Part shown: positions 17,075 to 61,710 of the stretch, in pieces
Layout: every line of letters starts with the position of its first letter
Position numbering within the stretch: the first letter of the stretch is position 1
Assembly (NCBI RefSeq): GCF_000959365.1
Contig: NZ_CP009556.1
Coordinates: forward strand, 930,001 to 994,000
Direction: 5' to 3'
Origin: Burkholderia oklahomensis C6786
GTDB lineage: Bacteria > Pseudomonadota > Gammaproteobacteria > Burkholderiales > Burkholderiaceae
DNA length: 64,000 nucleotides
Translations under genes and position numbers: made by a program
Notes under the pieces: generated by a model
What the model was told of the DNA's origin: nothing
Databases searched by the model: none
What the model saw: the letters and a program-made list of their open reading frames with translations, nothing else

Positions 17075-17088
17075 TTGACGCGCGTCAA
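17075..17088. promoter_or_regulatory. FNR/Anr box upstream of the first BON gene
   Basis: TTGACGCGCGTCAA, a perfect TTGA-N6-TCAA palindrome. Its centre at 17081.5 predicts transcription starting near 17123 if activated at -41.5, 68 nt before the BON gene start. Confidence 0.8.
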
Positions 17089-17190
17089 GGTCCGCGCCGC
17101 GCAATGCGCGATGCTGGATTGCGTGCGCCGCCGCGCAGCTTTTTCGCTGCGGGCGGCCGCTTGACGAAACCGGTTGGCGAGGAGACGACG

Positions 17191-17838
17191 ATGAAATCCG
17201 ATGCTGTGCTCAGGCAAGATGTCGAACAGGAACTGTATTGGGATCCGTCGCTGGATGCGCGGCAGATCGACGTGTCGGTGCACGACCGCATCGTGACGCT
17301 GCGCGGCTTCGTGCCGAGCTGGGCGCAGAAGTACGCGGCGCAGAAGGCCGCGCAGCGCATCGCCGGCGCGCGGGCGCTCGTGCTCGAGCTGAAGGTGCTG
17401 CCTCGCGAATCGCCTCGCGACGACGAAGCGCTCGCCGCCGCGATCGTGTCTGCGCTCGCGTGGCAGGAAGGGCTCGCGGGGCAGGAGATTCACGTCGACG
17501 TCGACGAGGGCTGCGTGACGCTCACGGGCGAGGTCGACTTCGGCTATCAGCGGCAGGCGGCAGAAACGGTCGTGAGCCGGATGCGCGGCGTGATCGGCGT
17601 CGTCAACCGGATCGACGTGCACTTGCGCGACGCGGGCGAGACCGTGCGCGAGCGCGTCGCGGATGCGCTCGCGCGGCGCGCGCAGCGCGAGGCCATGCAT
17701 ATCGACGTCGATGAGCGCGACGGCGTCGTCACGCTGTCCGGCATCGTCGATTCGCTCGTCGAGCGGCGCGCGGCGTGCGGCGCCGCATGGTCGGTCAAGG
17801 GCGTGCGCGAGGTCGTCGATCATCTGAGCGTCGCGTAG
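17191..17838 (+). CDS. Triple-BON-domain protein (first copy)
   Basis: A 215-residue protein of three consecutive BON modules of about 70 residues: roughly 3-70, 76-145 and 148-215. Each shows the beta-alpha core with the conserved Gly (VSVHDRIVTLRGFV, VDVDEGCVTLTGEV, IDVDERDGVVTLSGIV). BON domains bind phospholipid or other surfaces in envelope-stress proteins such as OsmY, but no signal peptide is visible here, so the location is unclear. GAGGAG precedes the ATG at 17191. A perfect FNR box lies about 100 bp upstream. A close paralogue of the same architecture is at 51823-52473. Confidence 0.85.
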   Translation: MKSDAVLRQDVEQELYWDPSLDARQIDVSVHDRIVTLRGFVPSWAQKYAAQKAAQRIAGARALVLELKVLPRESPRDDEALAAAIVSALAWQEGLAGQEIHVDVDEGCVTLTGEVDFGYQRQAAETVVSRMRGVIGVVNRIDVHLRDAGETVRERVADALARRAQREAMHIDVDERDGVVTLSGIVDSLVERRAACGAAWSVKGVREVVDHLSVA

Positions 17839-17896
17839 GCGCGGCGGCGGCGCGCGGCGCTTGCGCGTCGTGCGCCCGGTGCTCGACACTGACCGG

Positions 17897-18111
17897 CGGC
17901 AAGCGGCAAGCGGCAAGCGGCAAGCGGCAAGCGGCAAGCGGCAAGCGGCAAGCGGCCAGCGGCAAGCGGCCAGCGGCCAGCGGCCAGCGGCCAACGGCCA
18001 ACGGCCAACGGCCAACGGCCAACGGCCAACGGCCAACGGCCAACGGCCAACGGCCAACGGCCAACGGCCAACGGCCAACGGCCAACGGCCAACGGCCAAC
18101 GGCCAACGGCC
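17897..18111. repeat. 7-bp mosaic tandem repeat, about 30 copies
   Basis: About 215 bp of 7-base units that change along the array: CGGCAAG at the left, mixed CGGCAAG and CGGCCAG in the middle, then a long homogeneous run of CGGCCAA. It fills the gap between the BON gene and the PfkB-type kinase gene. The ordered change of unit type is a record of repeated slippage and point change. Confidence 0.93.
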
Positions 18112-18230
18112 GTGGACACGCGCCGGAGCCGACAGTTCGACGCCAACCCGCACAGGTGCGACGCGGCGCGCGACTTCCGCCGCCGCGTTCGATTTTCCCG
18201 TTACCTTTCCGTTGCGAACCTTTTTGCACG

Positions 18231-19172
18231 ATGACCGAAATCGTCACCATCACGCCGAATCCCGCAGTCGACGTCGCGACGTCCGTCGACCGCGTGACCG
18301 ACACCCGCAAGCTGCGCTGCGGACCCGCGCGGCGCGACCCGGGCGGCGGCGGGATCAACGTCGCGCGCGTGCTGACGCGCCTCGGCGCCGATTGCGCGGC
18401 GCTCTATCTCGCGGGCGGCGACACAGGTCGCGCGCTGCGCGGCCTGCTCGCCGACGAGCGAATGCGCGCGAGCGGCGTCGACGTGGCCGACGAGACGCGA
18501 GAGAACTTTTCGGTGCTTGAAACGTCGACGGGGCGCGAGTTCCGCTTCGTGCTGCCGGGGCCGACGCTCGCGCCCGACGAATGGCCGAGCTGCATCGACG
18601 CGCTCGCGCGGCTCGCCGACGCGTCGCGCTTTCTGGTGATGAGCGGCAGCCTGCCGCCCGGGATGCCGGACGATTGCTACGCCCGCCTCGCGCGGCTCGC
18701 GAACGCGCGCGGCGCGCGGACGGTCGTCGATACGTCGGGGCCGGCGCTCGCGGCGGCGCTCGATGCGGGCGTCTATCTGGTCAAGCCGAGCTTGGGCGAG
18801 CTGCGCGCGCTGACCGGCCTGCCGCTCGACGACGACGCCGAGCGCCTCGCGGCCGCGCGCGCGATCGTCGGCAGCGGACGCGCGCAGATCGTCGCGCTGA
18901 CGCTCGGCGACGCCGGCGCGCTCGTCGTATCGCGCGACGACGCGGTGCGGCTGCCGGGCGCGCGCGTCGCGGTGCGCAGCGCGATCGGCGCGGGCGACAG
19001 CTTCGTCGCGGGGCTCGTCGACGCGCTCAATCGCGGCGCGAGCGTCGCCGATGCGTCGCGTTACGCGCTCGCCGCCGCGTCGGCGTCGCTGCTGAGCGCG
19101 GGCACCGCGTTGTGCACGAAGGACGACGTCGAGCGGATCTATCGGGAATTGCCGGGGACGGTCGAGGCCTGA
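18231..19172 (+). CDS. PfkB-family sugar-phosphate kinase (6-phosphofructokinase-2/1-phosphofructokinase type)
   Basis: A 313-residue ribokinase-superfamily kinase. The N-terminus ITPNPAVDVATSVDRV and the GGGGINVARVLTRLG substrate motif (about 39-53) are those of the hexose-phosphate (PfkB/FruK/LacC) branch. The catalytic Asp lies in GAGDSFVAGLVDAL (about 250-263), and KPSLGEL is present. The likely reaction is ATP-dependent phosphorylation of fructose 6-phosphate or fructose 1-phosphate; substrate is not decidable from sequence. No clear FNR box and no strong ribosome-binding site precede it. The long 7-bp repeat occupies the upstream region and could affect expression. Confidence 0.85.
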   Translation: MTEIVTITPNPAVDVATSVDRVTDTRKLRCGPARRDPGGGGINVARVLTRLGADCAALYLAGGDTGRALRGLLADERMRASGVDVADETRENFSVLETSTGREFRFVLPGPTLAPDEWPSCIDALARLADASRFLVMSGSLPPGMPDDCYARLARLANARGARTVVDTSGPALAAALDAGVYLVKPSLGELRALTGLPLDDDAERLAAARAIVGSGRAQIVALTLGDAGALVVSRDDAVRLPGARVAVRSAIGAGDSFVAGLVDALNRGASVADASRYALAAASASLLSAGTALCTKDDVERIYRELPGTVEA

Positions 19173-19542: not shown

Positions 19543-20721
19543 TCACGCATGCAGGACCGACGCCGCGTCCCGCGCGATCACCTGTTCCTCGTCGGTCGGC
19601 ACGACGAGCACCGCGATGCGGCTCGCGTCGCGGCTGACGATCTCCGCGTTGCGCGCGTTCGCATCGGCATCGAGCTCGACGCCGAGCCAGCGCAGCCGCT
19701 CGCACACCGCGGCGCGCGTTTCGGGCTGATGCTCGCCGATGCCCGCGGTGAACACGAGCGCGTCGAGGCCGCCGAGCGTCGCCGAAAGCCGCGCGGTTTC
19801 GCCGGCGATCCGGAACGCGAACAGATCGAGCGCGTCGCGCGCGCCGTCCGAGCGATCGGCGAGCAGCACGCGCGCGTCGCCGCTCACGCCTGATACGCCG
19901 AGCAATCCCGAGCGGTGATACAGCATCTGCTCGACCGCATCGACCGAATAGCCGAGCATCTTTTGAAGATGCAGCACGACGCCCGCGTCGAGCGCGCCGC
20001 AGCGCGTCGCCATCGGAATTCCGTCGAGCGTCGAGAAGCCCATGCTCGTGTCGCGGCTCACGCCGGCGTCGAGCGCGCACAGGCTCGCGCCACTGCCGAG
20101 GTGCGCGGCGACGACCTTGCCGCGCGCGAGCGCCGGATGCCGCTCGCGCAGCCGCCCGGCGACGTATCGGTAAGACAGCCCATGAAAACCGTAGCGCTTG
20201 ACGCCTTCGTCGAACAGCGCGCGCGGCAGCGCGAAGCGCCGCACGAGATCGGACTGCGTCCGGTGGAACGCGGTGTCGAACGACGCGACCTGCGGCAGAC
20301 GCGGACGCAGATGACGCAGCGCGCGAATCAGGCGCACGCTCTGCGGCTGATGCAGCGGCGCGAGCGGCACGAGCGCGGCGATCGCGTCGAGCGTGCGATC
20401 GTCGATGCGGACCGGCCCGTCGAACGCGTCGCCGCCGTGCACGACGCGATGGCCGACCGACACGAGCTCGTGCAGCGACAGATGCGCGGCGATCCAGTCG
20501 AGCGCCTCGTCGAGCACTTCGTGCAGATCGTCGGTGACGGGCGCGGCGAGCGCAACGGTGTGCGCGTCGCCGCCGTTCGAGTATTCGAACTGCAGCGGCG
20601 TCCGGTTGAAGTCGATCTTGCCGCGTCCGAGCGGCGCGGGCTCGCCGTTCGCGACGCTGTAGAGGCCGATCTTCAGCGTCGACGAACCGGCGTTGAACGT
20701 CAGCAGCAGCGGCTCGCTCAT
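19543..20721 (-). CDS. ackA: Acetate kinase
   Basis: Interconverts acetyl phosphate plus ADP with acetate plus ATP, so it can generate ATP in fermentation. The 392-residue product opens with LLTFNAGSSTLKIGL (Asn10, Ser13 region), has the substrate-binding HRVVHGGD (about 120-127), GFHGLSYRYV, and the ATP-binding GIGEHQPETRA near the C-terminus. The start at 20721 overlaps the stop of the phosphotransacetylase gene by 4 bp (ATGA). A long open frame upstream is the antisense or shifted frame of that gene. It is the last gene of phaC-pta-ackA and should use acetyl phosphate made by the preceding enzyme. Confidence 0.95.
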   Translation of the reverse strand: MSEPLLLTFNAGSSTLKIGLYSVANGEPAPLGRGKIDFNRTPLQFEYSNGGDAHTVALAAPVTDDLHEVLDEALDWIAAHLSLHELVSVGHRVVHGGDAFDGPVRIDDRTLDAIAALVPLAPLHQPQSVRLIRALRHLRPRLPQVASFDTAFHRTQSDLVRRFALPRALFDEGVKRYGFHGLSYRYVAGRLRERHPALARGKVVAAHLGSGASLCALDAGVSRDTSMGFSTLDGIPMATRCGALDAGVVLHLQKMLGYSVDAVEQMLYHRSGLLGVSGVSGDARVLLADRSDGARDALDLFAFRIAGETARLSATLGGLDALVFTAGIGEHQPETRAAVCERLRWLGVELDADANARNAEIVSRDASRIAVLVVPTDEEQVIARDAASVLHA

Positions 20722-22121
20722 GATGCGAGCGCGCGGGCGCGCGTCCTCTCGGCGACGAGCTTCGCGAGCGCGGCGGACGCGATCCGCACGCGCAGGCTGT
20801 CCGCGCGGCTCGTCAGGATGATCGGCAGCCGCGCGCCGAGCACGAGGCCCGCGGCGTCGGCGCCCGCGAAGTACATCAGCTGCTTCGCGAGCATGTTGCC
20901 CGCTTCGAGGTCGGGCACGAGCAGGATGTCGGCCTGGCCCGCGACGGGCGATGTGATGTCCTTCAACTGCGCGGCGATCGCGCTCACCGCGTTGTCGAAC
21001 GCGAGCGGCCCGTCGACGATCGCGCCCGCGATCTGCCCGCGCGCGGCCATCACGGTGAGCGCGGCCGCGTCGAGCGTCGACGGCATCTTCGAGTTGACGG
21101 TCTCGACCGCCGCGAGCACCGCGACGCGCGGTCGATCGATGCCGAGCACGTGCAGCAGGTCGACCGCGTTCTGGCAGATGTCGCGCTTCTGTTCGAGCGT
21201 CGGCGCGATGTTGATCGCCGCGTCGGTGATGAGGAGCGGCTTCGGATACGCGGGCACGTCCATCGCGTAGACATGGCTGATGCGCCGCTCGGTGCGCAGC
21301 AGCGACGCCGGACCGACGACCGCGGCGAGCAGCTCGTCGGTATGCAGGCTGCCCTTCATCAGCGCGGCGACCTGGCCCGTGCCGCCCAGCTCGACCGCGC
21401 GCGCGGCGGCCGCATGGCTGTGCTCGACCGCTTCGATCGGCACGCCCGCGAGATTCACGCCGGCCGCTTCGGCCGCCGCGCGGATCTTCGCTTCGGGGCC
21501 GATCAGGATCGGATCGATCAGGTTCTCGTCGCGCGCGTCGATCGCCGCGCGGATCGCGTCCGGCGAGCACGGATGGACGACCGCGGTGCGCAGCGGCGGC
21601 TGCTCGCGCGCGTCGCGCACGAACGTCTCGTAGCGGTCGTGGCGGCGCACGGCGACGTCCGGCGCCGGCACGCGCTCCCACGCGATCGGCTTGTCGGGCG
21701 CGATCACGGTCGCGGTGCCGCGCAGCACGACCTGGCCGTCCTGGTTCGTGCAGCGCGTGTCGAGCAGCACGATCCGCTTCTCCGATTGCTTCTCCTTGAC
21801 GGTCACGGTCGCCGTGACCGTGTCGCCCGGCGCGACCGGATGCCGGAACTCGAGCGTCTGGTCGAGATAGATCGTGCCCGGCCCCGGCAGCTTCGTGCCG
21901 AGCACCGCGGACACGAGCGCGCCCGTCCACATCCCGTGGACGACGACGTGGCCGAACAGATCGTGCGCGGCGAACGCCGCGTCGAGGTGCGCGGGGTTCA
22001 CGTCGCCGGACATCGCGGCGAACAGGTCGATGTCGTCGCGCGACGCGAGGCGCACGAGCGATGCGCTGTCGCCGATCGCGAGCGATTCGAACGGTCGGTT
22101 CTGCAGGATTTCGCGATCCAC
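20718..22121 (-). CDS. Bifunctional MaoC-type enoyl-CoA hydratase / phosphate acetyl(butyryl)transferase
   Basis: A 467-residue fusion. Residues about 8-150 form a MaoC hot-dog domain with the hydratase pair Asp40 and His45 (GDVNPAH). From about 165 to 460 lies the PTA/PTB domain that exchanges CoA for phosphate on an acyl group. The start is a GTG at 22121, chosen because AAGGAG lies just upstream and inside the end of phaC; a longer frame reading back into phaC lacks a start signal. It could hydrate crotonyl-CoA-type intermediates for PHB metabolism while making acyl phosphate for AckA. It sits between phaC and ackA in one transcript. Confidence 0.88.
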   Translation of the reverse strand: MDREILQNRPFESLAIGDSASLVRLASRDDIDLFAAMSGDVNPAHLDAAFAAHDLFGHVVVHGMWTGALVSAVLGTKLPGPGTIYLDQTLEFRHPVAPGDTVTATVTVKEKQSEKRIVLLDTRCTNQDGQVVLRGTATVIAPDKPIAWERVPAPDVAVRRHDRYETFVRDAREQPPLRTAVVHPCSPDAIRAAIDARDENLIDPILIGPEAKIRAAAEAAGVNLAGVPIEAVEHSHAAAARAVELGGTGQVAALMKGSLHTDELLAAVVGPASLLRTERRISHVYAMDVPAYPKPLLITDAAINIAPTLEQKRDICQNAVDLLHVLGIDRPRVAVLAAVETVNSKMPSTLDAAALTVMAARGQIAGAIVDGPLAFDNAVSAIAAQLKDITSPVAGQADILLVPDLEAGNMLAKQLMYFAGADAAGLVLGARLPIILTSRADSLRVRIASAALAKLVAERTRARALAS

Positions 22122-22131: not shown

Positions 22132-23925
22132 TTATTTCTGAAACACATAGGTGCCCGGCGCATCGCCGAGCGTTTCCGCGCCCGGCTTGCCGAGCCGCGG
22201 CGGCGCGACGCGCTGCGCGCTCGAATGCTCGGCGAGCCACGCATGCCACGCGGGCCACCACGAGCCTTCGCAGTCGGTCGCGCCGGCGAGCCATTCGTCG
22301 GGCGAGATGCTCGGCGCGTCGGCGGCCGTGAGCTTCGTCCGATAACGGCGCTTCGGATGGCCGGGCTCGCTGACGATGCCCGCGTTGTGGCCGCCCGCCG
22401 TCAGCACGAACGTCACGTCGCTGTCGGTCAGGTAGTGGATCTTGTAGACCGAGCGCCACGGCGCGATGTGGTCGTGCTCGGTGCCGACGACGAAGAACGG
22501 CGCGCGGATGTTGTGCACCGACACCGTCTGCCCGTCGATCACGTAGCGGTTCGTCGCGAGATCGTTGTCGAGGAACAAGTGGCGCAGATACTCGGAGTGC
22601 ATCCGGTACGGCATCCGCGTCGAGTCGGCGTTCCACGCCATCAGGTCGATCATCGGCGTGCGCTCGCCGAGCAGGTAGTCGTGGATCATGCGCGACCAGA
22701 TCAGGTCGTTCGACATCAGCAGCTGGAACGATCCCGCCATCTGGTGCGCGCCGAGAAACCCGCGCTCCCACATCATGCTTTCGAGGAAGTAGATCTCGCT
22801 TTCGTCGATGAAGAGCTGCAGCTCGCCCGGCTCGGTGAAGTCCGTTTGCGCGGCGAGCAGCGTGATCGACGCGAAGCGCTCGTCGCCCGCGTTCGCCATC
22901 GCCGCGGCCGCGATCGACAGCAGCGTGCCGCCGAGACAGTAGCCGGTCGCATGGATCTTCGCGCCGGGCACGATCTTGCCGATCGTGTCGAGCGCGTCCA
23001 TCACGCCGAGCCGGCGGTAGTCGTCGAGGCTCAGATCGCGGTCGCTCGCGTCGACGTTGCGCCACGAGATGCAGAACACCGTGTGCCCCTCGCCGACCAG
23101 ATAGCGGATGAGCGAATTGTGGGGCGACAGATCGAGAATGTAGTACTTCATGATCCACGCGGGCACGATGAGGATCGGCTCCGCGTAGACATCGGGCGTC
23201 GCCGGGCCGTACTGCAGCAGCTCGATCAGATGATTGCGGAACACGACGCGGCCGGGCGCCGTCGCGACGTCCTTGCCGACCTGGAAGCGCTCGACGCCCG
23301 CGGGCGGCAGCTTCGTCATCAGGCGCCGGACGTCGTCCAGATAATTCCACACGCCCTGCGCAAGGTTCGTGCCGCACGACAGCGCGGTGCGCTGCGCGAC
23401 CTCCGGATTCGTCACGACGTAGTTCGCCGGCGCGAACGTGTCGAGCATCTGCCGCGCGGAGAACGCGACGACGTCCTCGTGATGGCGCGACACGCCGGGC
23501 ACTTCGTGGGTCGCCGCGCGCCACCATTGCTCGGCGAGCAGGAACGCCTGGCACCAGAAGCGGTACGGCTCGAGCTGCCACGCGCTCGCGTGGAAGCGCC
23601 GGTCGCCGGGCGACGGCTGGGCGGGCGCCGCGGGCGTGTGCCCGGTCGCCGCTTCGAACAGGTATTCGGTGAGCTGCGCGGCATGCTTCATCGCGAGCGA
23701 CGCGAGCTCGGCGCGCTTGCCGGGCGCGGCCGCGAGGTGAATCAGCCAGTCGGACAGCGCAAGCTGCAGCGCGGCGGGCGACAGGCCCGACGTCAGCTTC
23801 GCGAGCGATGCTTCCTTCGCGAAATCGAATACGCGGTACGGGCTTTCCTGCTCGTACGACGCGGGCGGGTGGGCGGGCGGCGGCGCTGCGGGCGCGCCGG
23901 GTTCGGCGGTATGGCGTGTGTCCAT
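22132..23925 (-). CDS. phaC: Class I polyhydroxyalkanoate synthase
   Basis: Polymerises (R)-3-hydroxyacyl-CoA into storage polyester on granules. The 597-residue enzyme has an N-terminal PhaC_N region and an alpha/beta core. The lipase-box variant GYCLGG at 328-333 carries the nucleophile Cys330; the Asp lies in GTEHDHIAPW and the His in GGHNAGI, completing the triad. The start at 23925 (MDTRHTAEPG) follows GAAGGAAG; the frame continues upstream into the control region without a better site. First gene of phaC-pta-ackA, divergent from the N-ATPase operon across a 359-bp region with two FNR-like boxes. phbB lies 35 kb away in this window. Confidence 0.93.
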   Translation of the reverse strand: MDTRHTAEPGAPAAPPPAHPPASYEQESPYRVFDFAKEASLAKLTSGLSPAALQLALSDWLIHLAAAPGKRAELASLAMKHAAQLTEYLFEAATGHTPAAPAQPSPGDRRFHASAWQLEPYRFWCQAFLLAEQWWRAATHEVPGVSRHHEDVVAFSARQMLDTFAPANYVVTNPEVAQRTALSCGTNLAQGVWNYLDDVRRLMTKLPPAGVERFQVGKDVATAPGRVVFRNHLIELLQYGPATPDVYAEPILIVPAWIMKYYILDLSPHNSLIRYLVGEGHTVFCISWRNVDASDRDLSLDDYRRLGVMDALDTIGKIVPGAKIHATGYCLGGTLLSIAAAAMANAGDERFASITLLAAQTDFTEPGELQLFIDESEIYFLESMMWERGFLGAHQMAGSFQLLMSNDLIWSRMIHDYLLGERTPMIDLMAWNADSTRMPYRMHSEYLRHLFLDNDLATNRYVIDGQTVSVHNIRAPFFVVGTEHDHIAPWRSVYKIHYLTDSDVTFVLTAGGHNAGIVSEPGHPKRRYRTKLTAADAPSISPDEWLAGATDCEGSWWPAWHAWLAEHSSAQRVAPPRLGKPGAETLGDAPGTYVFQK

Positions 23926-24098: not shown

Positions 24099-24112
24099 CT
24101 GATTTGCATCAA
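24099..24112. promoter_or_regulatory. FNR-like box in the phaC / N-ATPase intergenic region
   Basis: CTGATTTGCATCAA: one mismatch from TTGA-N6-TCAA and close to the TTGAT-N4-ATCAA consensus. It is nearly midway between the divergent starts (23925 and 24285). Activation of phaC from it would put the transcript start near 24064. Confidence 0.6.
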
Positions 24113-24208: not shown

Positions 24209-24222
24209 TTGACCGAGATCAG
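24209..24222. promoter_or_regulatory. FNR-like box before the N-ATPase operon
   Basis: TTGACCGAGATCAG, one mismatch from the perfect box. Its centre at 24215.5 predicts a transcript start near 24257, 28 nt before the atpD start, so it is well placed to activate the ATPase operon. Confidence 0.6.
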
Positions 24223-24251: not shown

Positions 24252-26525
<2,274 letters not shown>

Positions 26526-26529
<4 letters not shown>

Positions 26530-26921
26530 CGAAGCCGCCCGCGCCCGACGCGAAGCGCGACGGCGAGCCCGGCGCACGGCGCGCGGCCCGATCCGACGCG
26601 CAGCCGGCCGCGCGGCCCGACGCGCACGGCCCGGCCGCCGACCGCGTCGAGCAGGCGGCGCGCACGGCCGCGCGGCGGGCGGCGCGCGGCGTGCGCGATC
26701 CGGAGCCGTCGCTCGGCAGGCGCCTCGCGCAGATCGGCGTGCTCGGCTGGACGATCCTCGCGCCGACGCTCGCCGCGCTCGCGCTCGGCCGCTGGCTCGA
26801 TCGCGTGTTCGCGTCGCGCGTGTTCTTCTCCGCGCCGCTCTTGATGCTCGGCGCGGCGCTCGGCTTCTGGCTCGCATGGCGCTGGATGAAGGATCAACAA
26901 GACGGAGATCGCGATGACTGA
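26526..26921 (+). CDS. atpQ: N-ATPase accessory membrane protein AtpQ (AtpI/AtpZ-like)
   Basis: A 131-residue protein: an Ala/Arg/Asp-rich soluble N-terminal half (1-65), then two membrane helices at about 70-90 and 100-120 (IGVLGWTILAPTLAALALG and APLLMLGAALGFWLAW). Position between atpC and atpR and the two-helix topology identify it as the operon's AtpQ, related to AtpI/AtpZ proteins implicated in assembling the c-ring or in cation transport. Starts inside the ATGA overlap with atpC. Confidence 0.82.
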
Positions 26922-27222
26922 AATTTGGGAAACCGCGCGCGCGTCGCTCGACGGCATCGCCGTCGCGATCGGGCTCGCCGCCGGACTCGCGACGGGCGCG
27001 TGCCATTTCGTGTCGCTCGGCTGGAACAGCCGCCTGTTCGTCGAAGGCCGCGCGGGCGCGGCGCTCGTGCTGCAGCTGGTGCGGATCGCGCTCACGGTCG
27101 CGGTGCTCGTCGTGCTCGCGCGCATCGGCGTCGACGCGCTCGTCGCCGGCTCGGCGGGGCTGTTCGTCGCGCGCACGTTCGCGATCCGCTGGGCGGGCGA
27201 ATTGACGGGAGCGCGGCGATGA
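26914..27222 (+). CDS. atpR: N-ATPase accessory membrane protein AtpR
   Basis: A 102-residue protein with three predicted membrane helices (about 13-33, 47-68, 72-92). The second and third carry Arg residues facing the membrane (VLQLVRIALT and FVARTFAIRW), a known peculiarity of AtpR, proposed to interact with the Na+-binding Glu of subunit c during ring assembly. It overlaps atpQ by 8 bp and atpB by ATGA. AtpR occurs only in N-ATPase operons, so it is diagnostic for the type. Confidence 0.85.
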   Translation: MTEIWETARASLDGIAVAIGLAAGLATGACHFVSLGWNSRLFVEGRAGAALVLQLVRIALTVAVLVVLARIGVDALVAGSAGLFVARTFAIRWAGELTGARR

Positions 27223-27920
27223 ACGCGTCGCCGCTGTCGACCGTGCCGATGTTCTCGATCGGCCCCGTCGGCATCTCGGAGCCCGTGCTCGCGACGTGGG
27301 GGATCATGGCCGTGCTCGTCGCGCTCGCGCTCTTCGCGCGCAAGCGGCTGAGCGTCGACGCGCCGTCGCGGCTGCAGAGCGTGCTCGAGCTGTTCGTGTC
27401 GACGATCGACGCGCAGATCGTCGACACGATGCAGACGCCGCCCGCGCGCTACCGCGCGCTGATCGGCACGATCTTCGCGCTCGTGTTCTGCGCGAACAGC
27501 GCATCGCTCGTGCCGGGCGTCGAGCCGCCGACCGCGCATCTCGAGACCGACGCCGCGCTCGCGCTCATCGTGCTCGCCGCGACGCTCTATTACGGCGTGC
27601 GCGTGCGCGGCCTGCGCGGCTATCTCGCGACGTTCGCGGAGCCGACGTGGGTGATGATTCCGCTCAACGTCGTCGAGCAGCTGACGCGCACGTTCTCGCT
27701 GATCGTGCGTCTGTTCGGCAACGTGATGAGCGGCGTATTCGTGATCGGCATCGTGCTGTCGCTCGCCGGTCTGTTCGTGCCGATTCCGCTGATGGCGCTC
27801 GATCTGCTGACGGGCACCGTGCAGGCGTACATCTTCATGGTGCTGTCGATGGTGTTCATCGGCGCGGCCGTGTCCGGTGACGAAATTTCCGCGCCGCGGC
27901 GCGGGCAGGAGAACTCATGA
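27219..27920 (+). CDS. atpB: N-ATPase subunit a
   Basis: A 233-residue membrane stator subunit that forms the ion half-channels. Around residues 145-175 is the helix with the essential Arg (LTRTFSLIVRLFGNVMSG), preceded by the PLNVVEQL sequence typical of subunit a. Shorter than E. coli subunit a (271), normal for N-ATPases. Overlaps atpR and atpE by ATGA at each end, indicating tight translational coupling. Confidence 0.9.
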   Translation: MNASPLSTVPMFSIGPVGISEPVLATWGIMAVLVALALFARKRLSVDAPSRLQSVLELFVSTIDAQIVDTMQTPPARYRALIGTIFALVFCANSASLVPGVEPPTAHLETDAALALIVLAATLYYGVRVRGLRGYLATFAEPTWVMIPLNVVEQLTRTFSLIVRLFGNVMSGVFVIGIVLSLAGLFVPIPLMALDLLTGTVQAYIFMVLSMVFIGAAVSGDEISAPRRGQENS

Positions 27921-28165
27921 ACAATCTCATCGAAGTGGTCAGCATCGCGGCGGCCGCGCTCGCGGTGTCGTTCGGCGCGATCGGTCCCGCGCTCGCCGAA
28001 GGGCGCGCGGTCGGCGCGGCGATGGACGCGATCGCGCGGCAGCCGGACGCGTCCGGCACCGTGTCGCGCACGCTGTTCGTCGGGCTCGCGATGATCGAGA
28101 CGATGGCGATCTACTGCCTCGTCGTCGCGCTGCTGCTGCTGTTCGCGAACCCGTTCGTCAAGTGA
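27917..28165 (+). CDS. atpE: N-ATPase subunit c with Na+-binding residues
   Basis: An 82-residue two-helix proteolipid forming the rotor ring. Aligned by eye with the Na+ c-subunit of Ilyobacter, helix 1 has Glu28 (PALAEGRAVG) where that protein has Gln32, and helix 2 has Glu61, Thr62 and Tyr66 (IETMAIY) where it has Glu65, Ser66 and Tyr70. The loop ARQPDASG is the conserved polar loop. These ligands support Na+ rather than H+ coordination, as reported for N-ATPases. The ion is inferred. Confidence 0.92.
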   Translation: MNNLIEVVSIAAAALAVSFGAIGPALAEGRAVGAAMDAIARQPDASGTVSRTLFVGLAMIETMAIYCLVVALLLLFANPFVK

Positions 28166-28178
28166 CGAGGGGGCCGCG

Positions 28179-28928
28179 ATGCGAATCGACTGGTCCACGC
28201 TCGCGTTGCAGGCGATCAACGTCGTCGTGCTCGTGTGGCTGCTGTCGCGCTTCCTGTTTCGTCCGGTCAGCGACATCATCGCGAAGCGCCAGGCCGCCGC
28301 GCGCAAGCTGATCGACGATGCGACGCACGAGCGCGACGCCGCGCGCGCCGAGCACGAGCGCGTGCATGCCGAGCGCGCGTCGCTCGCCGCGGCGCGCGAC
28401 GACGCATTGAAGGCGGCACTCGCGCAGGCGGCCGCCGAGCGCGAGCGCTTGATCGAGCAAGCGCGCGCCGATGCGCAGGCGCTGCGCGACGCGGCGCGCG
28501 CACAGGCGGAAGCCGACGCCGCGCAGCGCGCGAAAGAGCTCGACGCGCGCGCGACGCGCCTCGCGGTCGACATCGCCGCGAAGCTGCTCGCGCGCTTGCC
28601 CGACAGCGCGCGCGTCGCGGGCTTCGTCGACGGCGTCGCGGCGTCGCTCGCGCAGCTGCCGGCCGACGTGCGCGCGGCGCTCGCCGCCGACGACGCGCAA
28701 GTCCAGCTCGTCGCGCCGCGCGCATTGACCGCGCAGGAAGCGGCCGCATGCCGCGCGGCGTTCACGGCGAGCGTCGGACGACCGCTCGAGCCGGACGTGC
28801 GCGTCGATCCGGCGCTGATCGCGGGGCTCGAGCTCGAATCGAAATACGCGAACGTGCGCAACAGCCTGCGCCAGGATCTCGCGACCATCGAGGCGGCATT
28901 GCTGAGCGACGATGACGGCGACCACTGA
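28179..28928 (+). CDS. atpF: N-ATPase subunit b with delta-like C-terminal part
   Basis: A 249-residue peripheral-stalk protein, about 90 residues longer than a usual b subunit. One membrane helix at 5-27, then a long Ala/Arg-rich coiled coil to about 130, then a globular part (about 135-249). That part includes [20 protein letters not shown], which resembles the C-terminal strand region of subunit delta (DPxLIGGxxxxxxxxxxDxS). The operon has no separate delta gene, so this domain probably attaches the stalk to alpha. It overlaps atpA by 17 bp. Confidence 0.88.
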
Positions 28929-30723: not shown

Positions 30724-31571
30724 GCGACAAGCTCGCCGCGATCGAAGCGCGCACCGACACCGCGCGCCAGTTGCAGACGGTGATCGGCGCGATGCAGGGC
30801 GTCGCCGCCGCGCGCGCGCACGAGGCGCAGCAGCGCTTGCCGGGGATCCGCGCATCGGCGGCGACGGTCGGCGCGGCGATCGGCGATGCGCTGTCGGCCG
30901 GCGCGCCTTCGCTCGAAGCCGCGGCCGCGCGACGCGGCGCCCCGCGCGCGCGGCTCGTCATCGTGCTGTGCAGCGAGCAGGGCTTCGTCGGCGCGTACAA
31001 CGCGCAGCTGATCGAATATGCGACGCGGCCCGATGCGGCGGCCGCGACGCGCGAATACATGATGGTCGGCACGCGCGGCGCGATGCTCGCCGAGGCGGGC
31101 GGCGTGCCGCTCGTCTGGAGCACGCCGATGGCGTCGCACGCGGACGACGTCGTGCACCTCGCGAACCGGATCACCGACGCGCTGTACGCGCATCTCGCCG
31201 AGCGCGGCGCGCAGCCGGTGTCGATCGTCCACGCGATGCCGGCCGCGGCGCAGCGGCTCGACGTGATCGAGCGCCGCCTGCTGCCGTTCGACTACACGCG
31301 CTTCGACACCGAGCCGCGCGCACAGCCGCCGCTCGTGCATCTGCCGCCCGCGACGCTGCTCGCGGAGCTCGCGCAGGCATACGTGTTCGTCGAGCTGTGC
31401 GATGCGGCGATGCTCGCGTTCGCGGCGGAGAACGAAGCGCGCACGCGCGCGATGATCGCCGCGCGCGAATCGGTCGAGCGCACGCTCGGCGAGCTGTTGC
31501 AGGCCTACCGGATCGCACGGCAGGACGAGATCACGGCGGACATCGTCGAATTGGCGTCGAGCGCGTTGTGA
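30720..31571 (+). CDS. atpG: N-ATPase subunit gamma
   Basis: A 283-residue rotor shaft. The N-terminal coiled coil (residues 4-35, [20 protein letters not shown]) and the C-terminal helix (about 220-283, [20 protein letters not shown]) that insert into alpha3beta3 are clear, with a Rossmann-like centre between them ([15 protein letters not shown]). Last gene of the operon; no intrinsic terminator is seen after it. Confidence 0.9.
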
Positions 31572-44668: not shown

Positions 44669-44682
44669 TTGACGGAAGTCAA
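44669..44682. promoter_or_regulatory. FNR/Anr box upstream of the stress protein and second export operon
   Basis: TTGACGGAAGTCAA, a perfect box. Centre 44675.5 predicts transcription from about 44717, leaving a leader of about 130 nt before the universal stress protein gene. Confidence 0.8.
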
Positions 44683-51268: not shown

Positions 51269-51282
51269 TTGAGCCAAGTCAA
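51269..51282. promoter_or_regulatory. FNR/Anr box, probably for the deacetylase
   Basis: TTGAGCCAAGTCAA, a perfect box. For the leftward deacetylase it predicts a transcript start near 51234 and a leader of about 180 nt. It could also act on the rightward gene. Confidence 0.7.
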
Positions 51283-51355: not shown

Positions 51356-51369
51356 TTGACGTGCGTCAA
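51356..51369. promoter_or_regulatory. FNR/Anr box for the 54-aa membrane microprotein
   Basis: TTGACGTGCGTCAA, a perfect box. Its centre at 51362.5 predicts a transcript start near 51404, 20 nt before the ATG at 51424. Confidence 0.82.
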
Positions 51370-51734: not shown

Positions 51735-51748
51735 TTGACGTGCATCAG
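51735..51748. promoter_or_regulatory. FNR-like box upstream of the second BON gene
   Basis: TTGACGTGCATCAG, one mismatch. Centre 51741.5 gives a predicted start near 51783, 40 nt before the BON gene ATG. Confidence 0.7.
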
Positions 51749-54465: not shown

Positions 54466-54479
54466 TTGATCGCGGTCAA
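54466..54479. promoter_or_regulatory. FNR/Anr box for the LOG gene
   Basis: TTGATCGCGGTCAA, a perfect box. For the leftward gene, the centre at 54472.5 predicts a start near 54431 and a 28-nt leader. Confidence 0.82.
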
Positions 54480-54579: not shown

Positions 54580-54593
54580 TTGACGCATGTCAA
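54580..54593. promoter_or_regulatory. FNR/Anr box for the hibernation-factor-like gene
   Basis: TTGACGCATGTCAA, a perfect box. Centre 54586.5 predicts a start near 54628, about 80 nt before the ATG at 54710. Only 101 bp from the LOG box, so the two divergent genes have separate sites. Confidence 0.82.
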
Positions 54594-56032: not shown

Positions 56033-56046
56033 TTGACGCAGGTCAA
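56033..56046. promoter_or_regulatory. FNR/Anr box for cytochrome c - DUF3564 genes
   Basis: TTGACGCAGGTCAA, a perfect box. Centre 56039.5 predicts a leftward start near 55998, 23 nt before the ATG at 55975. Confidence 0.85.
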
Positions 56047-56166: not shown

Positions 56167-56180
56167 TTGATGCAAGTCAA
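56167..56180. promoter_or_regulatory. FNR/Anr box for the DUF3562-like gene and alcohol dehydrogenase
   Basis: TTGATGCAAGTCAA, a perfect box. Centre 56173.5 predicts a rightward start near 56215, 49 nt before the ATG at 56264. Confidence 0.85.
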
Positions 56181-57603: not shown

Positions 57604-58386
57604 TCACACGCGCGCGAGCCCTTGCGGATCGGTGATGCGGATCTGCTTGCCGCGCGGCGAGATCAGCTTGTCGCGCTGGAACTTCGACAGCATCCGGCTG
57701 ACGGTCTCGAGCTTCATCCCGAGATAGCAGCCGATTTCCTCGCGCGTCATCCGCAGATTGAACTCCGACGCCGAATAGCCGCGTTTCTGGAAACGCTCGG
57801 AGATGTTGAGCAGGAACGCGGCGACGCGCTGCTCGGCCGTCATCGTGCCGAGCAGCATCATCAGGCTCGATTCGCGGACGATCTCGCCGCTCATCAACTG
57901 ATGGACGTGGTGTTGCATCGGCTTCACTTCGCGGCAGACGGCTTCGAGCTGCGCGAACGGAATGATGCAGACGGTGCTGTCCTCGAGCGCGATCGCGTCG
58001 CTGTTGTGACAGCCGCTGCACACGCCGTCGAGCCCGAGCGTCTCGCCGACGATCTGGAAGCCCGTCACCTGCTCGCGGCCGTCGCGGTGCATGACGACCG
58101 TCTTGAACGAGCCGGTGCGCACCGCATAGATGCTCTGGAATGTGTCGTGCGTGCGAAACAATGCTTCGCCGCGTTTGACGTGGCGCGTCGTGCACACCAT
58201 CGCGTCGAGACGGGCGAATTCGCTCGGCGTGAGGCTGGCCGGCATGCACACGTCGCGTATCGCGCAGGTCGAACAGCGGGTCGCTGGCTGCTTCGGCGCG
58301 TCGTTGGCCGCGACGGGATGCAACGGGAACACGGATCGTTGCGGCACGACGGAAGGCGCAACTTCATTGACTGAGGCGGTCAGCAT
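57604..58386 (-). CDS. fnr: FNR/Anr-type oxygen-sensing regulator
   Basis: A 260-residue Crp/Fnr-family activator. N-terminal cysteines Cys38, Cys41 and Cys47 (CX2CX5C) with Cys123 or Cys126 as the fourth ligand give the oxygen-labile [4Fe-4S] cluster of FNR. Cyclic-nucleotide-type roll to about 165, dimer helix, then the DNA-recognition helix in EEIGCYLGMKLETVSRMLSK, with Glu, Ser and Arg in the FNR positions that read TTGA. This is exactly the half-site found at ten places in the window. AAGGAG precedes the ATG at 58386. Two strong hairpins lie in its leader. Confidence 0.92.
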   Translation of the reverse strand: MLTASVNEVAPSVVPQRSVFPLHPVAANDAPKQPATRCSTCAIRDVCMPASLTPSEFARLDAMVCTTRHVKRGEALFRTHDTFQSIYAVRTGSFKTVVMHRDGREQVTGFQIVGETLGLDGVCSGCHNSDAIALEDSTVCIIPFAQLEAVCREVKPMQHHVHQLMSGEIVRESSLMMLLGTMTAEQRVAAFLLNISERFQKRGYSASEFNLRMTREEIGCYLGMKLETVSRMLSKFQRDKLISPRGKQIRITDPQGLARV

Positions 58387-58809: not shown

Positions 58810-58823
58810 TTGACCCATGTCAA
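58810..58823. promoter_or_regulatory. FNR/Anr box upstream of phbB
   Basis: TTGACCCATGTCAA, a perfect box. Centre 58816.5 predicts a rightward start near 58858 and a leader of about 200 nt before phbB at 59061. No separate small gene is supported in that leader. Confidence 0.78.
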
Positions 58824-59060: not shown

Positions 59061-59807
59061 ATGGAAGCAAAACGCGTGGCGTTTGTGACGGGCGGTATGG
59101 GCGGATTGGGCGCGGCGGTCAGCAGGCGGCTGCATGACGCCGGCATGGCCGTGGCGGTATCGCACTCGGAGCGCAACGATCATGTGTCGACGTGGCTCAT
59201 GCACGAACGCGACGCCGGGCGCGACTTCAAGGCATACGGCGTCGACGTCGCCGACTTCGAGTCGTGCGAGCGTTGCGCGGAGAAGGTGCTCGCGGATTTC
59301 GGCAGGGTCGATGTGCTGATCAACAACGCGGGGATCACGCGCGACGCGACGTTCCTGAAGATGACGAAGGGCGACTGGGACACCGTGATGCGCACCGATC
59401 TCGATGCGATGTTCAATGTGACGAAACAGTTCATCGCCGGGATGGTCGAGCGGCGCTTCGGACGCATCGTCAACATCGGTTCGGTGAACGGCTCGCGCGG
59501 CGCGTTCGGTCAGGCGAACTACGCATCGGCGAAGGCGGGCATCCACGGCTTCACGAAGACGCTCGCGCTCGAGACGGCGAAGCGCGGGATCACGGTCAAC
59601 ACCGTGTCGCCCGGCTATCTCGCGACCGCGATGGTCGAAGCGATGCCGCAGGACGTGCTCGAAGCGAAGATTCTTCCGCAGATTCCGGTGGGCCGGCTCG
59701 GCAAGCCCGACGAAGTGGCCGCGCTCATCGCGTTCCTGTGCTCGGACGACGCGGCGTTCGTCACCGGCGCCGATCTCGCGATCAACGGCGGGATGCACAT
59801 GTATTGA
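59061..59807 (+). CDS. phbB: Acetoacetyl-CoA reductase
   Basis: NADPH-dependent reduction of acetoacetyl-CoA to (R)-3-hydroxybutyryl-CoA, the monomer for PHB. A 248-residue SDR with TGGMGGLG (10-17), NNAG (88-91) and catalytic Ser141, Tyr154 and Lys158. NGSRGAFGQANYASAKAGIH is the PhaB-type active-site region. AGGAGG lies upstream of the ATG at 59061. Supplies PhaC (22132-23925); both are preceded by FNR-type boxes. Confidence 0.92.
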   Translation: MEAKRVAFVTGGMGGLGAAVSRRLHDAGMAVAVSHSERNDHVSTWLMHERDAGRDFKAYGVDVADFESCERCAEKVLADFGRVDVLINNAGITRDATFLKMTKGDWDTVMRTDLDAMFNVTKQFIAGMVERRFGRIVNIGSVNGSRGAFGQANYASAKAGIHGFTKTLALETAKRGITVNTVSPGYLATAMVEAMPQDVLEAKILPQIPVGRLGKPDEVAALIAFLCSDDAAFVTGADLAINGGMHMY

Positions 59808-60252
59808 TCGAGTCCGCGCCGCCGTTCGCGCGGCGGCGCGCGCTTCGTTGCCGCGCGGCGCGGCGTCGGGCCGTGTCGTGTCGTGCCGTGTGTGCGGATG
59901 TCGGGCGCGTTGCTCATGCGACGCGTCGCGCGGCCCGAGATGTAACGTTCCTCTCCGTCGTTTCTCCGATACGCAGTTTCTTTCGCAGCCACTCGGCATC
60001 CGACCCAGCCCGTTCGCGGTCGCTCGATCGCTCGCTCGATTCTCGCGATCGTTTAGTGTGCCGAAACATCGAAGCCCGTTCGCGAACGCGGCGGATCGCG
60101 GGCGATGTATTCATCAGCATATTCATCGCGCCGATCTCGACGATTCGACGCGCATCGCTTCGCTTTCCAATCGATTCGTCCGATTCGTTCGACGCGTACG
60201 GCATGCCGAAGCGCCGGGCAGGCCTGCCTACCCGGCGCCCCGTTCGTCTCGT
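59808..60252. other. Gap between convergent phbB and RNase genes
   Basis: 445 bp between convergent genes. No gene or clear terminator supported; contains short GATCGCTCGCTCG-type direct repeats near 60020-60050. Confidence 0.4.
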
Positions 60253-61632
60253 TCACTTCGCACGCGCGGGCGCGTCCTCCAGCTCGACCGACTCGAGATA
60301 GGACGGCACTTCGCAGTGCCAATGCAGCGACTCTTCGATCCGGCGACGCAGCGCGTCGGCCGCCGCGGGCTCGCCGTGCGTGACGAAGGTGCGCGCGGGC
60401 GCGCTCGATTGCGCGCGGAGCCATGCGAGGATCTCGTTGTAGTCCGCATGCGCGGACAGCGACGAGATCATCTCGACCTGCGCGCGCACGCGCACGTATT
60501 CGCCGTGGATCTTCACCGTCGGCTCGTGCGCGGCGAGCGCCGCGCCGCGCGTGCCCGCCGCCTGGTAGCCGACGAGCAGGATCGTGTTGCGGCTGTCGGG
60601 CGCGTAGCGTTCGATGTGATGCAGCACGCGGCCGCCCGTCGCCATCCCGCTGCCCGCGATGATCACCATCGGCCCGTTGTGATCGGCGATCGCCTTCGAT
60701 TGCTCGACGGTGCGCACCATCGTCGCCGCATGGCCGATCGCGTCCGCATCGGACATCGTGAGCCGATGATCGCTCAGGCGCCGCCGGTAGATCTCGGTGA
60801 CGCTCGTCGCCATCGGACTGTCGAGGTAGACGGGCACGTGCGGCATCCGGCCCGTCTTCTTCAACTGGGCGATGTAGTGGAGGATCTCCTGCGCGCGCCC
60901 GACCGTGAAGCACGGCATCACGACCACGCCGCCGCGCGCGAACGTCTTTGAGAACACGTCGGCGAGCTCGGCCTCGGGATCGCTCGCGTCGTGCAGCCGG
61001 TCGCCGTACGTCGATTCGACGACGAGATAATCCGCATGAACGGGCGGCACGGGCGCGCGCATGATCGGATCGTGCGGGCGGCCGAGATCGCCCGAGAACG
61101 CGAGCAGCGTGTGCCGCCAGCAGACGACCACGCTCGCCGCGCCGAGAATGTGCCCGGCCGGCAGGAAACGGAAGTGCAGGTTGCCCGCGAGCGGCGTCGG
61201 CGCGTCGAATTCGCGCGGCGCGAGACGCTGCAGCGCGCGCTGCGCGTCGTCGACGGTGTAGAGCGGCAACGCCGGATGGTGCTTCGAATAGCCGTGGCGG
61301 TTTGCGAAGTCGGCTTCTTCCTCGAGGAGCCGCGCGCTGTCCATCAGCATGATCTCGGCGAGCTCCGCGGTGCCGTGCGTGCAATAGACCTGCCCGCGGA
61401 AGCCTTCGCGCACGAGCACGGGCAGATAGCCGCTGTGATCGAGATGCGCGTGCGTGAGCACGACGGCGTCGATCGAGTCGGCGGGCACGGGCAGCGGACT
61501 CCAGTTGCGCAGCCGCAGCTTCTTCGTGCCCTGGAACAGCCCGCAGTCGATCAGGACGCGTGTCCCGGCGTCCTCGAGCAGATACTTCGAGCCCGTGACG
61601 GTTTCCGTCGCGCCGAGGAACGTCAGTTTCAT
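60253..61632 (-). CDS. MBL-fold beta-CASP ribonuclease (CPSF73/Ysh1-like)
   Basis: A 459-residue metallo-beta-lactamase RNase. Zinc motif HAHLDH at 61-66, GH and SGD further on (AGHILGAA, FSGDLGR), STYGDR, and the C-terminal SAHADY; motifs A-C of the beta-CASP cap are visible (VVMPCFTVGRAQEI and MVIIAGSGMATGG). These mark an RNA-cutting enzyme like the archaeal/eukaryotic CPSF group, widespread in proteobacteria but with unclear role. The start at 61632 gives the conserved MKLTFLGA. An FNR-like box lies 30 nt beyond the predicted leader. Confidence 0.9.
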   Translation of the reverse strand: MKLTFLGATETVTGSKYLLEDAGTRVLIDCGLFQGTKKLRLRNWSPLPVPADSIDAVVLTHAHLDHSGYLPVLVREGFRGQVYCTHGTAELAEIMLMDSARLLEEEADFANRHGYSKHHPALPLYTVDDAQRALQRLAPREFDAPTPLAGNLHFRFLPAGHILGAASVVVCWRHTLLAFSGDLGRPHDPIMRAPVPPVHADYLVVESTYGDRLHDASDPEAELADVFSKTFARGGVVVMPCFTVGRAQEILHYIAQLKKTGRMPHVPVYLDSPMATSVTEIYRRRLSDHRLTMSDADAIGHAATMVRTVEQSKAIADHNGPMVIIAGSGMATGGRVLHHIERYAPDSRNTILLVGYQAAGTRGAALAAHEPTVKIHGEYVRVRAQVEMISSLSAHADYNEILAWLRAQSSAPARTFVTHGEPAAADALRRRIEESLHWHCEVPSYLESVELEDAPARAK

Positions 61633-61696
61633 AAGCCCCCCTGAGAAGCGTGTGATGTGGGATGCGTCCATTGCACTACACGCAACGCGCGCATCG

Positions 61697-61710
61697 CTGA
61701 CGTGGATCAA
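61697..61710. promoter_or_regulatory. FNR-like box for the beta-CASP RNase
   Basis: CTGACGTGGATCAA, one mismatch. Centre 61703.5 predicts a leftward start near 61662, 30 nt before the ATG at 61632. Confidence 0.62.

What the first reader, a model, noticed from the sequence alone, without database searches (positions are those of the whole stretch)
17075..61710. Window-wide low-oxygen (FNR/Anr) regulon with at least ten perfect boxes
Perfect TTGA-N6-TCAA sites occur at 17075, 31799, 44669, 51269, 51356, 54466, 54580, 56033, 56167 and 58810, with one-mismatch sites at 24099, 24209, 43608, 51735 and 61697. Most are at the distance expected for activation (box centre about 41.5 bp before a start with a short leader). 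A regulator with the right cysteines and recognition helix is encoded at 57604-58386. The set resembles the lxa low-oxygen locus of B. cenocepacia (known). What looks less described is the joint inclusion of the N-ATPase, phaC-pta-ackA and two export systems.
Basis: partly seen in the sequence, partly recalled or inferred. Interest (0 to 1): 0.8.

Follow-up and report, generated by a model that had tools for sequence, protein, structure and literature searches.

The report
Low-oxygen gene island with N-ATPase
A stretch of what looks like a Burkholderia chromosome carries a cluster of conserved low-oxygen-type switches before storage-polymer, fermentation, export and stress genes and before a poorly understood second ATP-driven ion pump, which hints that this pump belongs to life with little oxygen.

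Summary
Ten perfect TTGA-N6-TCAA sites stand against 0.19 expected. All 15 cited sites keep their half-sites in the nearest held genome: 0 of 120 bases changed, 12.6 expected. -10-like hexamers peak 21 bp downstream. The regulator at 57604-58386 aligns with a solved FNR, cysteines and recognition helix included.

The island matches the lxa type of low-oxygen island; 8 of 10 FNR loci fetched from related genomes show it. Both exporters carry conserved boxes: perfect in 18 of 18, degenerate in 27 of 27 loci.

The part I found no print for is the N-ATPase. Of 94 N-ATPase operons, 25 have a perfect box within 400 bp upstream; permuted half-sites give 0-2. Ordinary ATP synthase operons of the same genomes give 0 of 23. 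In a second family, probably Rhodobacteraceae, 14 of 55 N-ATPases lie within 10 kb of a PHA synthase; 0.56 expected.

Oxygen dependence is not shown; published B. thailandensis data partly contradict it. Which FNR paralogue reads the boxes is open, and the proposed energy role is inference.

The parts
17075..17088 (+). perfect FNR-type box before BON-domain (OsmY-like) gene 17191-17838
18231..19172 (+). PfkB-type hexose/phosphofructokinase
19543..20721 (-). acetate/propionate kinase (ackA)
   Evidence: NF005462 above cut-off
20718..22121 (-). bifunctional enoyl-CoA hydratase/phosphate acetyltransferase (pta)
   Evidence: NF006045 above cut-off
22132..23925 (-). PHA synthase (phaC), nearest to class I (TIGR01838, 530 bits, below its cut-off of 622.65)
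24099..24112 (-). one-mismatch FNR box with -10-like TACAGT 22 bp on, towards phaC
24209..24222 (+). one-mismatch FNR box with -10-like TATGGT 21 bp on, towards N-ATPase atpD
24285..31571 (+). nine-gene N-type ATPase operon atpDCQRBEFAG (starts of single genes are my calls)
   Evidence: order as given in PMC9927469
31799..31812 (+). perfect FNR box before adhP (31872-32897)
36530..43480 (-). exporter 1: ABC-2 permease, RbbA-like double ATPase, HlyD-type adaptor, outer-membrane factor
43608..43621 (.). degenerate FNR box of exporter 1 / divergent TetR-type gene; a related box in 27 of 27 loci of relatives
44669..44682 (+). perfect FNR box before universal stress protein gene (44850-45320) and exporter 2
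45605..49986 (+). exporter 2: DevCA-like ABC transporter, HlyD-type adaptor, NodT-family outer-membrane factor
51269..51282 (-). perfect FNR box, best -10 towards polysaccharide deacetylase-like gene 50215-51021
51356..51369 (+). perfect FNR box, downstream gene uncertain
51735..51748 (+). one-mismatch FNR box before second BON-domain gene (51823-52473); its -10 is weak
54466..54479 (-). perfect FNR box towards TIGR00730 (LOG-like) gene 53462-54379
54580..54593 (+). perfect FNR box towards small gene 54722-55009 (no family found)
56033..56046 (-). perfect FNR box towards cytochrome c gene 55628-55975
56167..56180 (+). perfect FNR box towards DUF3562 gene and alcohol dehydrogenase (56264-57480)
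57604..58386 (-). FNR-family regulator
58810..58823 (+). perfect FNR box towards acetoacetyl-CoA reductase phbB (59061-59807)
61697..61710 (-). one-mismatch FNR box towards beta-CASP metallohydrolase gene 60253-61632

Best explanation
The region is an FNR-family (Fnr/Anr) regulon island, the B. pseudomallei-group form of the Burkholderia low-oxygen (lxa-type) island. When oxygen falls, an FNR protein with its iron-sulfur cluster intact binds the TTGA-N6-TCAA boxes and activates class II promoters. The genes form an anoxic-survival set: PfkB and Pta-AckA make ATP without respiration, the dehydrogenases and PhbB-PhaC take up surplus reducing power, and the N-ATPase spends or recovers ATP to hold the membrane gradient while the respiratory chain is idle; stress proteins and two exporters complete it. 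Shown here: the boxes, their conservation and -10 spacing, the regulator's key residues, and enrichment of boxes before N-ATPase and phaC operons elsewhere. Inferred: oxygen dependence, which FNR acts, and every step of the energy role.
For: Box excess and clustering in G001. 15 of 15 sites conserved with 0 of 120 half-site changes, P 1.6e-6. -10 peak at 21 bp. FNR cysteines and ETxSR residues aligned with the solved FNR of PDB 5cvr/9qll. Same island in 8 of 10 FNR loci fetched from 9 related genomes, 46 boxes in 156 kb. Exporter 2: perfect box in 18 of 18 usable loci; exporter 1: degenerate box in 27 of 27. N-ATPase: 25 of 94 perfect and 53 of 94 within one mismatch, against 0-2 and 0-21 for 11 permuted half-sites; F-type operons of the same genomes 0 of 23 within 1,500 bp (Fisher 7e-5 against 11 of 22). 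phaC: 31 of 77 against 0-1. N-ATPase and phaC linked in a second family. Published co-behaviour: in B. pseudomallei lacking GvmR, BPSS1945-1953 (an F0F1-type cluster, by order this N-ATPase), 1944 (adhA), 1955 (pta), 1956 (ackA) and 1957 (pfk) rise together while the chromosome-1 ATPase does not (PMC5964159); BPSS1934 (USP), 1932, 1929 and 1924 are raised along with nitrate-respiration genes in a high biofilm former, where BPSS1917 is discussed too (PMC4474458).
Against: B. thailandensis, static against shaken stationary cultures: PhaC (BTH_II0418) protein and BTH_II0447 mRNA fall under oxygen limitation, PHA granules are absent, and the sections and passages I read report no N-ATPase induction (PMC3966863); six universal stress genes, none of them BTH_II0442, also fall. 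Its N-ATPase genes were lower at 37 than at 28 degrees together with nar, nos and usp genes. GvmR is a LysR-type regulator and that set was measured in exponential minimal-medium cultures, so other control exists. In the window the N-ATPase and phaC boxes each have one mismatch. 69 of 94 N-ATPase operons have no perfect box. Among boxes before N-ATPases, -10 scores towards atpD do not clearly beat the opposite direction (p 0.10). In Dinoroseobacter shibae FnrL and DnrD repress F0F1-ATP synthase genes, and the two passages I saw name no N-ATPase (PMC5398030).
Confidence: 0.7

Rival explanations
1. The boxes are real FNR-family sites but are read mainly by another paralogue (BPSS0031-type FNR, BPSS1163-type, or a Dnr), the local FNR being redundant or specialised.
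For: G001 has paralogues of 98, 81 and 56% identity, like the three described in B. pseudomallei (PMC8191878). In B. cenocepacia H111 the double anr mutant cannot survive anoxia and a single anr2 mutant still can in part (PMC9104464). FNR and Dnr sites look alike (recalled).
Against: The FNR gene sits inside the island in related genomes, and an FNR-like gene lies within about 12 kb of the N-ATPase in G006, G204, G093 and G069 (only 51-52% identical in the last two).
Confidence: 0.4
2. The N-ATPase is an acid-stress proton pump for life in phagosomes; the boxes serve its divergent neighbour only, so the ATPase is in the island by position.
For: Proposed for B. pseudomallei from the c17 proton-binding ring and virulence genes nearby (PMC5376962). 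The window's c-subunit has ETMAIY in place of ESTxxY.
Against: Boxes recur before N-ATPases in other genera and another family, with and without the sodium motif (12 of 41 without, 13 of 51 with, Fisher p 0.81), and the window has a separate box with a -10 facing atpD.
Confidence: 0.15
3. The island answers to stationary phase, growth rate or carbon status, and FNR-type binding there modulates or represses rather than activates.
For: B. thailandensis data and the GvmR effect in minimal medium.
Against: The -10 spacing fits activation; [quoted passage not shown] cenocepacia J2315 (PMC9104464).
Confidence: 0.12
4. The sites are chance matches in GC-rich DNA.
For: None beyond the simplicity of the motif.
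Confidence: 0.01

Closest known systems
lxa low-oxygen-activated locus of Burkholderia cenocepacia (BCAM0275-0323)
   Same: An island with universal stress protein, phosphofructokinase and metabolic genes (PMC6127331; PMC9104464); eight related genomes with this kind of content carry dense boxes.
   Different: The papers I read give six universal stress proteins and an alpha-crystallin; among the genes I scanned here (15-63 kb) there is one universal stress protein and no alpha-crystallin. Those passages name no N-ATPase in lxa, and the Anr they discuss (BCAM0049) lies outside it by number; here an FNR gene and an N-ATPase are inside.
B. pseudomallei BPSS1917-BPSS1957 / B. thailandensis BTH_II0418-0447
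   Same: Same order by locus number and product: phaC II0418, N-ATPase II0419-0427, USP II0442, TolC-like II0447; ATPase BPSS1945-1953, adhA 1944, pta-ackA-pfk 1955-1957, rbbA 1938, USP 1934, regulator 1917.
   Different: Not described as one FNR regulon in the passages I saw. The match is by order and product, not by alignment to those genomes.
phaC clusters with FNR/FixK-type boxes in other Proteobacteria
   Same: 31 of 77 phaC genes have an upstream perfect box; 17 of these 31 also have pta and ackA nearby.
   Different: Only 6 of the 80 phaC loci show an N-ATPase subunit (some contigs are short).
N-type ATPases (PMC5376962; PMC11738941; PMC4154653)
   Same: Operon order, atpQ/atpR-like genes, found beside an F-type enzyme in 23 of 23 genomes looked at.
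   Different: The passages I read propose salt, acid and ion-gradient roles; low-oxygen control is not among them.

Membership tests
FNR (iron-sulfur oxygen sensor of the CRP/FNR superfamily) | CRP-like sensor and HTH domains | tested here: met
   cNMP_binding, HTH_Crp_2, Crp above gathering scores
FNR (iron-sulfur oxygen sensor of the CRP/FNR superfamily) | Three N-terminal cysteines plus one central cysteine | tested here: met
   C-x2-C-x5-C and the central VC align with the solved FNR
FNR (iron-sulfur oxygen sensor of the CRP/FNR superfamily) | ETxSR recognition helix | tested here: met
   LETVSR against VETISR
FNR (iron-sulfur oxygen sensor of the CRP/FNR superfamily) | NCBIfam Fnr model NF008365 | tested here: inconclusive
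   best model, 225.7 bits, just under its cut-off of 228
FNR (iron-sulfur oxygen sensor of the CRP/FNR superfamily) | Oxygen-labile [4Fe-4S] cluster and binding to these boxes | not testable with these tools
   needs purified protein
FNR regulon | Conserved TTGA-N6-TCAA sites at class II spacing | tested here: met
FNR regulon | Transcription depends on oxygen and FNR | not testable with these tools
   published data mixed
lxa-type low-oxygen island | Shared gene content in the genus | tested here: met
Named case: B. pyrrocinia NZ_CP150851.1, FNR with three USP genes, cytochrome c and alcohol dehydrogenase, 4 boxes in 47 kb
lxa-type low-oxygen island | Alignment with BCAM0275-0323 itself | not tested
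   I did not look for the J2315 record
N-type ATPase | atpD and atpC first, two extra genes, no separate delta gene | tested here: met
   beta, epsilon, ATPase_gene1, F1F0_chp_2 (67.3 bits, cut-off 55.5), a, c, b, alpha, gamma
N-type ATPase | Diagnostic epsilon subunit model over cut-off | tested here: met
   TIGR03166 146.6 bits, cut-off 100.1
N-type ATPase | 'Alternate F1F0' models of the other subunits over cut-off | tested here: not met
   beta TIGR03305 594 of 752 (general atpD TIGR01039 scores 608), a TIGR03306 192 of 302, c TIGR03322 117 of 131, b TIGR03321 105 of 225, alpha TIGR03324 573 of 751, gamma TIGR03323 82 of 282. These are NCBI 'exception' models; operon order, the two extra genes and epsilon fit, and the B. 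pseudomallei operon of this order is called N-type in PMC5376962, so I read this as narrow cut-offs

The most novel reading that the evidence does not exclude
Across Proteobacteria a large class of N-ATPases, with and without the sodium motif, are low-oxygen bioenergetic machines under FNR-family control, working with PHA synthase and Pta-AckA as one module that keeps membrane gradients and redox balance when respiration stops, rather than being primarily salt or acid pumps.
Probability: 0.5. Interest if true: 0.8.

Novelty: new variant of a known kind. Interest (0 to 1): 0.62.

Why it matters
The cellular functions of N-ATPases are called largely unexplored (PMC5376962 abstract). A shared oxygen-type switch before N-ATPase operons in separate genera and families, absent from the ordinary ATP synthase operons of 23 of the same genomes, gives a concrete condition and partner pathway in which to look, and offers an alternative to the phagosome-acid proposal. 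It would also unite the lxa locus, the BPSS1917-1957 region and boxed phaC clusters as versions of one theme.

Tried and rejected
Gene starts: my coding model picks 17191, not 17104, for the BON gene; with the box at 17075 a start at 17104 would precede the expected transcript start. Chance origin of the boxes: rejected. Class-wide search with the beta subunit found one close match (G001, 97%); all others listed were 57% or less and were not used. Rotor ion motif as explanation of box presence: no link (92 loci classed by my own rule E[S/T]TxxY, two of 94 without a c-subunit hit; one classed motif was unreadable). -10 orientation before N-ATPases: not significant. Species of the window: not settled; its acetoacetyl-CoA reductase differs at nine of 247 residues from PDB 3gk3, which I recall as the B. 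pseudomallei enzyme, so I take the window as a close relative of B. pseudomallei rather than that species. Genus and family names of the unnamed G genomes are my inference.

Rows dropped: L109 (atpD off the contig, wrong hit) and L120 (no upstream) from the first-family N-ATPase set; G001 and the window counted apart. still included L109 (23); one search has 22+17+55 = 94; three of the 17 belong to the second family. One of the 25 boxes (L237) lies only 4 bp from the start. In the first run for exporter 1 only 3 of 27 loci passed my start filter; one search uses all 27, but its control counted perfect permuted sites only (0), not one-mismatch ones. For exporter 2 one of 19 loci (a fragment) failed the filter. 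Searches (28 of 76; 31 of 77) use slightly different phaC starts. The 80 phaC loci are the best 80 of 585. One F-type locus (L312) has a box on its other flank.

Literature: the ten searches found no paper joining N-ATPases with FNR boxes or low-oxygen control. Most lists were capped: the nearest tests are one paper, holding N-ATPase and polyhydroxy but no Fnr box; no listed paper holds both 'low-oxygen-activated' and N-ATPase; searches list 30 of 3,306 and 15 of 2,379. The library lacks most subscription papers; the DOI I tried for the original lxa paper was not held. Supplements could not be read, so S2 Table of PMC8191878, which may settle FNR dependence of BPSS1917-1957, is unread. Seen of papers: passages by term only for PMC6127331, PMC8191878, PMC4154653, PMC9104464, PMC3759415, PMC4474458, PMC5964159, PMC4057154, PMC12889130, PMC9927469, PMC5398030, PMC11738941; abstract, passages and named sections for PMC3966863 and PMC5376962. 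Other papers: search listing only.

Full report
Observation. None of the 15 named sites lies inside one of my gene calls. The window's own assembly is not held. In the nearest held genome, G001, 84 perfect sites occur in 6.6 Mb and the reversed control pattern 27 times; ten of the 84 lie in the 51.8 kb homologous to 17-59 kb of the window, 17 times the density of the rest. In 65 genomes of the genus the motif exceeds its reversed control in 64 (G1281 is the exception, 29 against 54).

Conservation and spacing. Aligned to G001, all ten perfect sites stay perfect and all five named one-mismatch sites are identical: 0 of 120 half-site bases differ where flanking identity predicts 12.6, while 4 of 90 spacer bases differ. 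Of the eight other one-mismatch sites, the one at 5986 is perfect in G001, the one at 62212 keeps its half-sites, and six lie in coding sequence and tell little (one of these lost a half-site base, one had no alignment). -10-like hexamers peak 21 bp after the box; the either-strand score was not reached in 20,000 draws of random intergenic positions. That spacing is the class II geometry of FNR (recalled). The per-gap profile used directions assigned with the same score, so the either-strand test is the fair one.

Regulator. The 260-residue protein has CRP-type domains above gathering scores, scores best with the NCBIfam Fnr model just under its cut-off (225.7 of 228), and aligns to the solved FNR of PDB 5cvr and 9qll with three N-terminal cysteines, the central cysteine and the ETxSR helix in register. 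G001 has three such proteins, 98%, 81% and 56% identical. B. pseudomallei has BPSS1917, BPSS1163 and BPSS0031 (PMC8191878).

What the island is. Family scans give, in order: thymidine phosphorylase, cytidine deaminase, BON protein, PfkB, AckA, enoyl-CoA hydratase-Pta fusion, PhaC, nine-gene N-ATPase, AdhP, a Rieske-type oxygenase-like protein, exporter 1, a TetR-type regulator, universal stress protein, exporter 2, a deacetylase, BON protein, LOG-like protein, cytochrome c, DUF3562, alcohol dehydrogenase, FNR, PhbB and a beta-CASP hydrolase; several small genes matched nothing. The order matches BTH_II0418-0447 and BPSS1957-1917 by locus number and product. I fetched ten FNR loci from nine related genomes; eight show the same island, with 3 to 9 boxes each, 46 in 156 kb. 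Diverged ackA (48-54%) occurs in most of these, and diverged phaC (52-53%) and pta (58-61%) in some, and exporter 2 in G006 (L133); so those are wider members of the island. A named case is the B. pyrrocinia record NZ_CP150851.1.

Exporters. The DevC-like gene is found in 19 of 65 genomes of the genus; of the 18 loci that passed my filters all have a perfect box within 1 kb upstream, none a permuted control. In three near species this is the box before the universal stress protein, about 930 bp away; in the other 15 it lies 290-385 bp away. Exporter 1: in the 27 best outer-membrane loci a degenerate box of the form (C/G/A)TGA-N6-TCAA lies 79-162 bp upstream in 27 of 27, and 15 of 27 also have a perfect box within 700 bp. 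Orthology of the more distant ones (63-71%) is likely but not proven.

N-ATPase. The epsilon model TIGR03166 is over cut-off in 25 of 249 sampled genomes of the family, 18 of 398 of the phylum and 54 of 295 of a second family centred on G847 (its name, Rhodobacteraceae, is my inference). In 94 operons with usable upstream sequence a perfect box lies within 400 bp of atpD in 25 (11 of 22, 3 of 17 and 11 of 55 by set; without L109) and one within one mismatch in 53; eleven permuted half-sites give 0-2 and 0-21. F-type operons of 23 of the first-family genomes have 0 boxes within 1,500 bp upstream of atpB. The window and G001 have two one-mismatch boxes between divergent phaC and atpD, each with a well-placed -10 facing one gene; G204 keeps two and G132 two boxes in the corresponding stretch. 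Box presence does not follow the rotor's ion motif (12 of 41 without it, 13 of 51 with it). The 22 first-family rotors classed all lack the sodium motif.

Linkage. Of 77 usable phaC upstream regions 31 have a perfect box (controls 0-1). pta and ackA both lie near phaC in 37 of 80 loci, and 17 of the 31 boxed ones have them. In 55 N-ATPase loci of the second family 14 lie within 10 kb of phaC; 0.56 expected from the phaC counts of the 53 genomes. FNR-like genes lie beside phaC and N-ATPase in G093 and G069 and near the N-ATPase in G006 and G204.

Published expression. For: the lxa locus is raised in low oxygen (PMC9104464, PMC6127331). In B. pseudomallei without GvmR the BPSS1945-1953 ATPase, adhA, pta, ackA and pfk rise together and the chromosome-1 ATPase does not (PMC5964159). 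BPSS1924, 1929, 1932 and 1934 are up in a high biofilm former along with nitrate-respiration genes; BPSS1917 is discussed there without a fold value in the passage (PMC4474458). Against: B. thailandensis in static culture has less PhaC protein, half the BTH_II0447 mRNA, no PHA granules and no N-ATPase induction in the parts I read (PMC3966863); the authors note that they compared stationary cells. The N-ATPase did vary with temperature together with nar, nos and usp genes.

Mechanism. I propose activation by an FNR-family protein at low oxygen. PfkB and Pta-AckA would supply ATP without respiration, PhbB-PhaC and the dehydrogenases would take up reducing power, and the N-ATPase would hold the membrane gradient. 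The reported c17 ring moves 5.7 ions per ATP (PMC5376962), which suits either a pump that spends little ATP per proton or synthesis at a low gradient. These functional steps are inference; only the DNA-level links are shown.

Novelty. The lxa-type island and FNR control of anoxic genes are known. A systematic FNR-box link of N-ATPases was not found in my ten paper searches, whose lists were mostly capped (see Tried and rejected). I rate it a new variant of a known kind with one general, testable novelty. On rechecking, confidence in the best explanation was set from 0.72 to 0.70, because pta-ackA follow phaC in only about half of the loci and the Fnr model falls just under its cut-off.

Noticed in passing
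5986-5999: A one-mismatch box in the window is perfect in G001 (TTGACTGATGTCAA), between a divergent SDR-like gene and the gene at 6008; a possible further member.
   Followed up: partly
G001 C2:1075073-1097885, 1447050-1474846, 2641427-2660540: Three further clusters of perfect boxes on the second contig of the nearest genome; their genes were not examined.
   Followed up: no
20718-22121: Pta is fused to an N-terminal enoyl-CoA hydratase-like part (NF006045), next to phaC; the fusion may feed hydroxyacyl-CoA to PHA synthesis.
   Followed up: no
32931-36530: Variable segment: 3.6 kb here, about 13.7 kb in G001, between adhP and exporter 1.
   Followed up: no
L115, L117 (genus g19): FNR-like gene, phaC and N-ATPase adjacent on one strand, without a box of up to one mismatch between phaC and atpD.
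   Followed up: partly
24285-31571: Six subunits fall below the cut-offs of NCBI's 'alternate F1F0' models although order, epsilon and the two extra genes fit N-type; this form may be under-annotated.
   Followed up: partly
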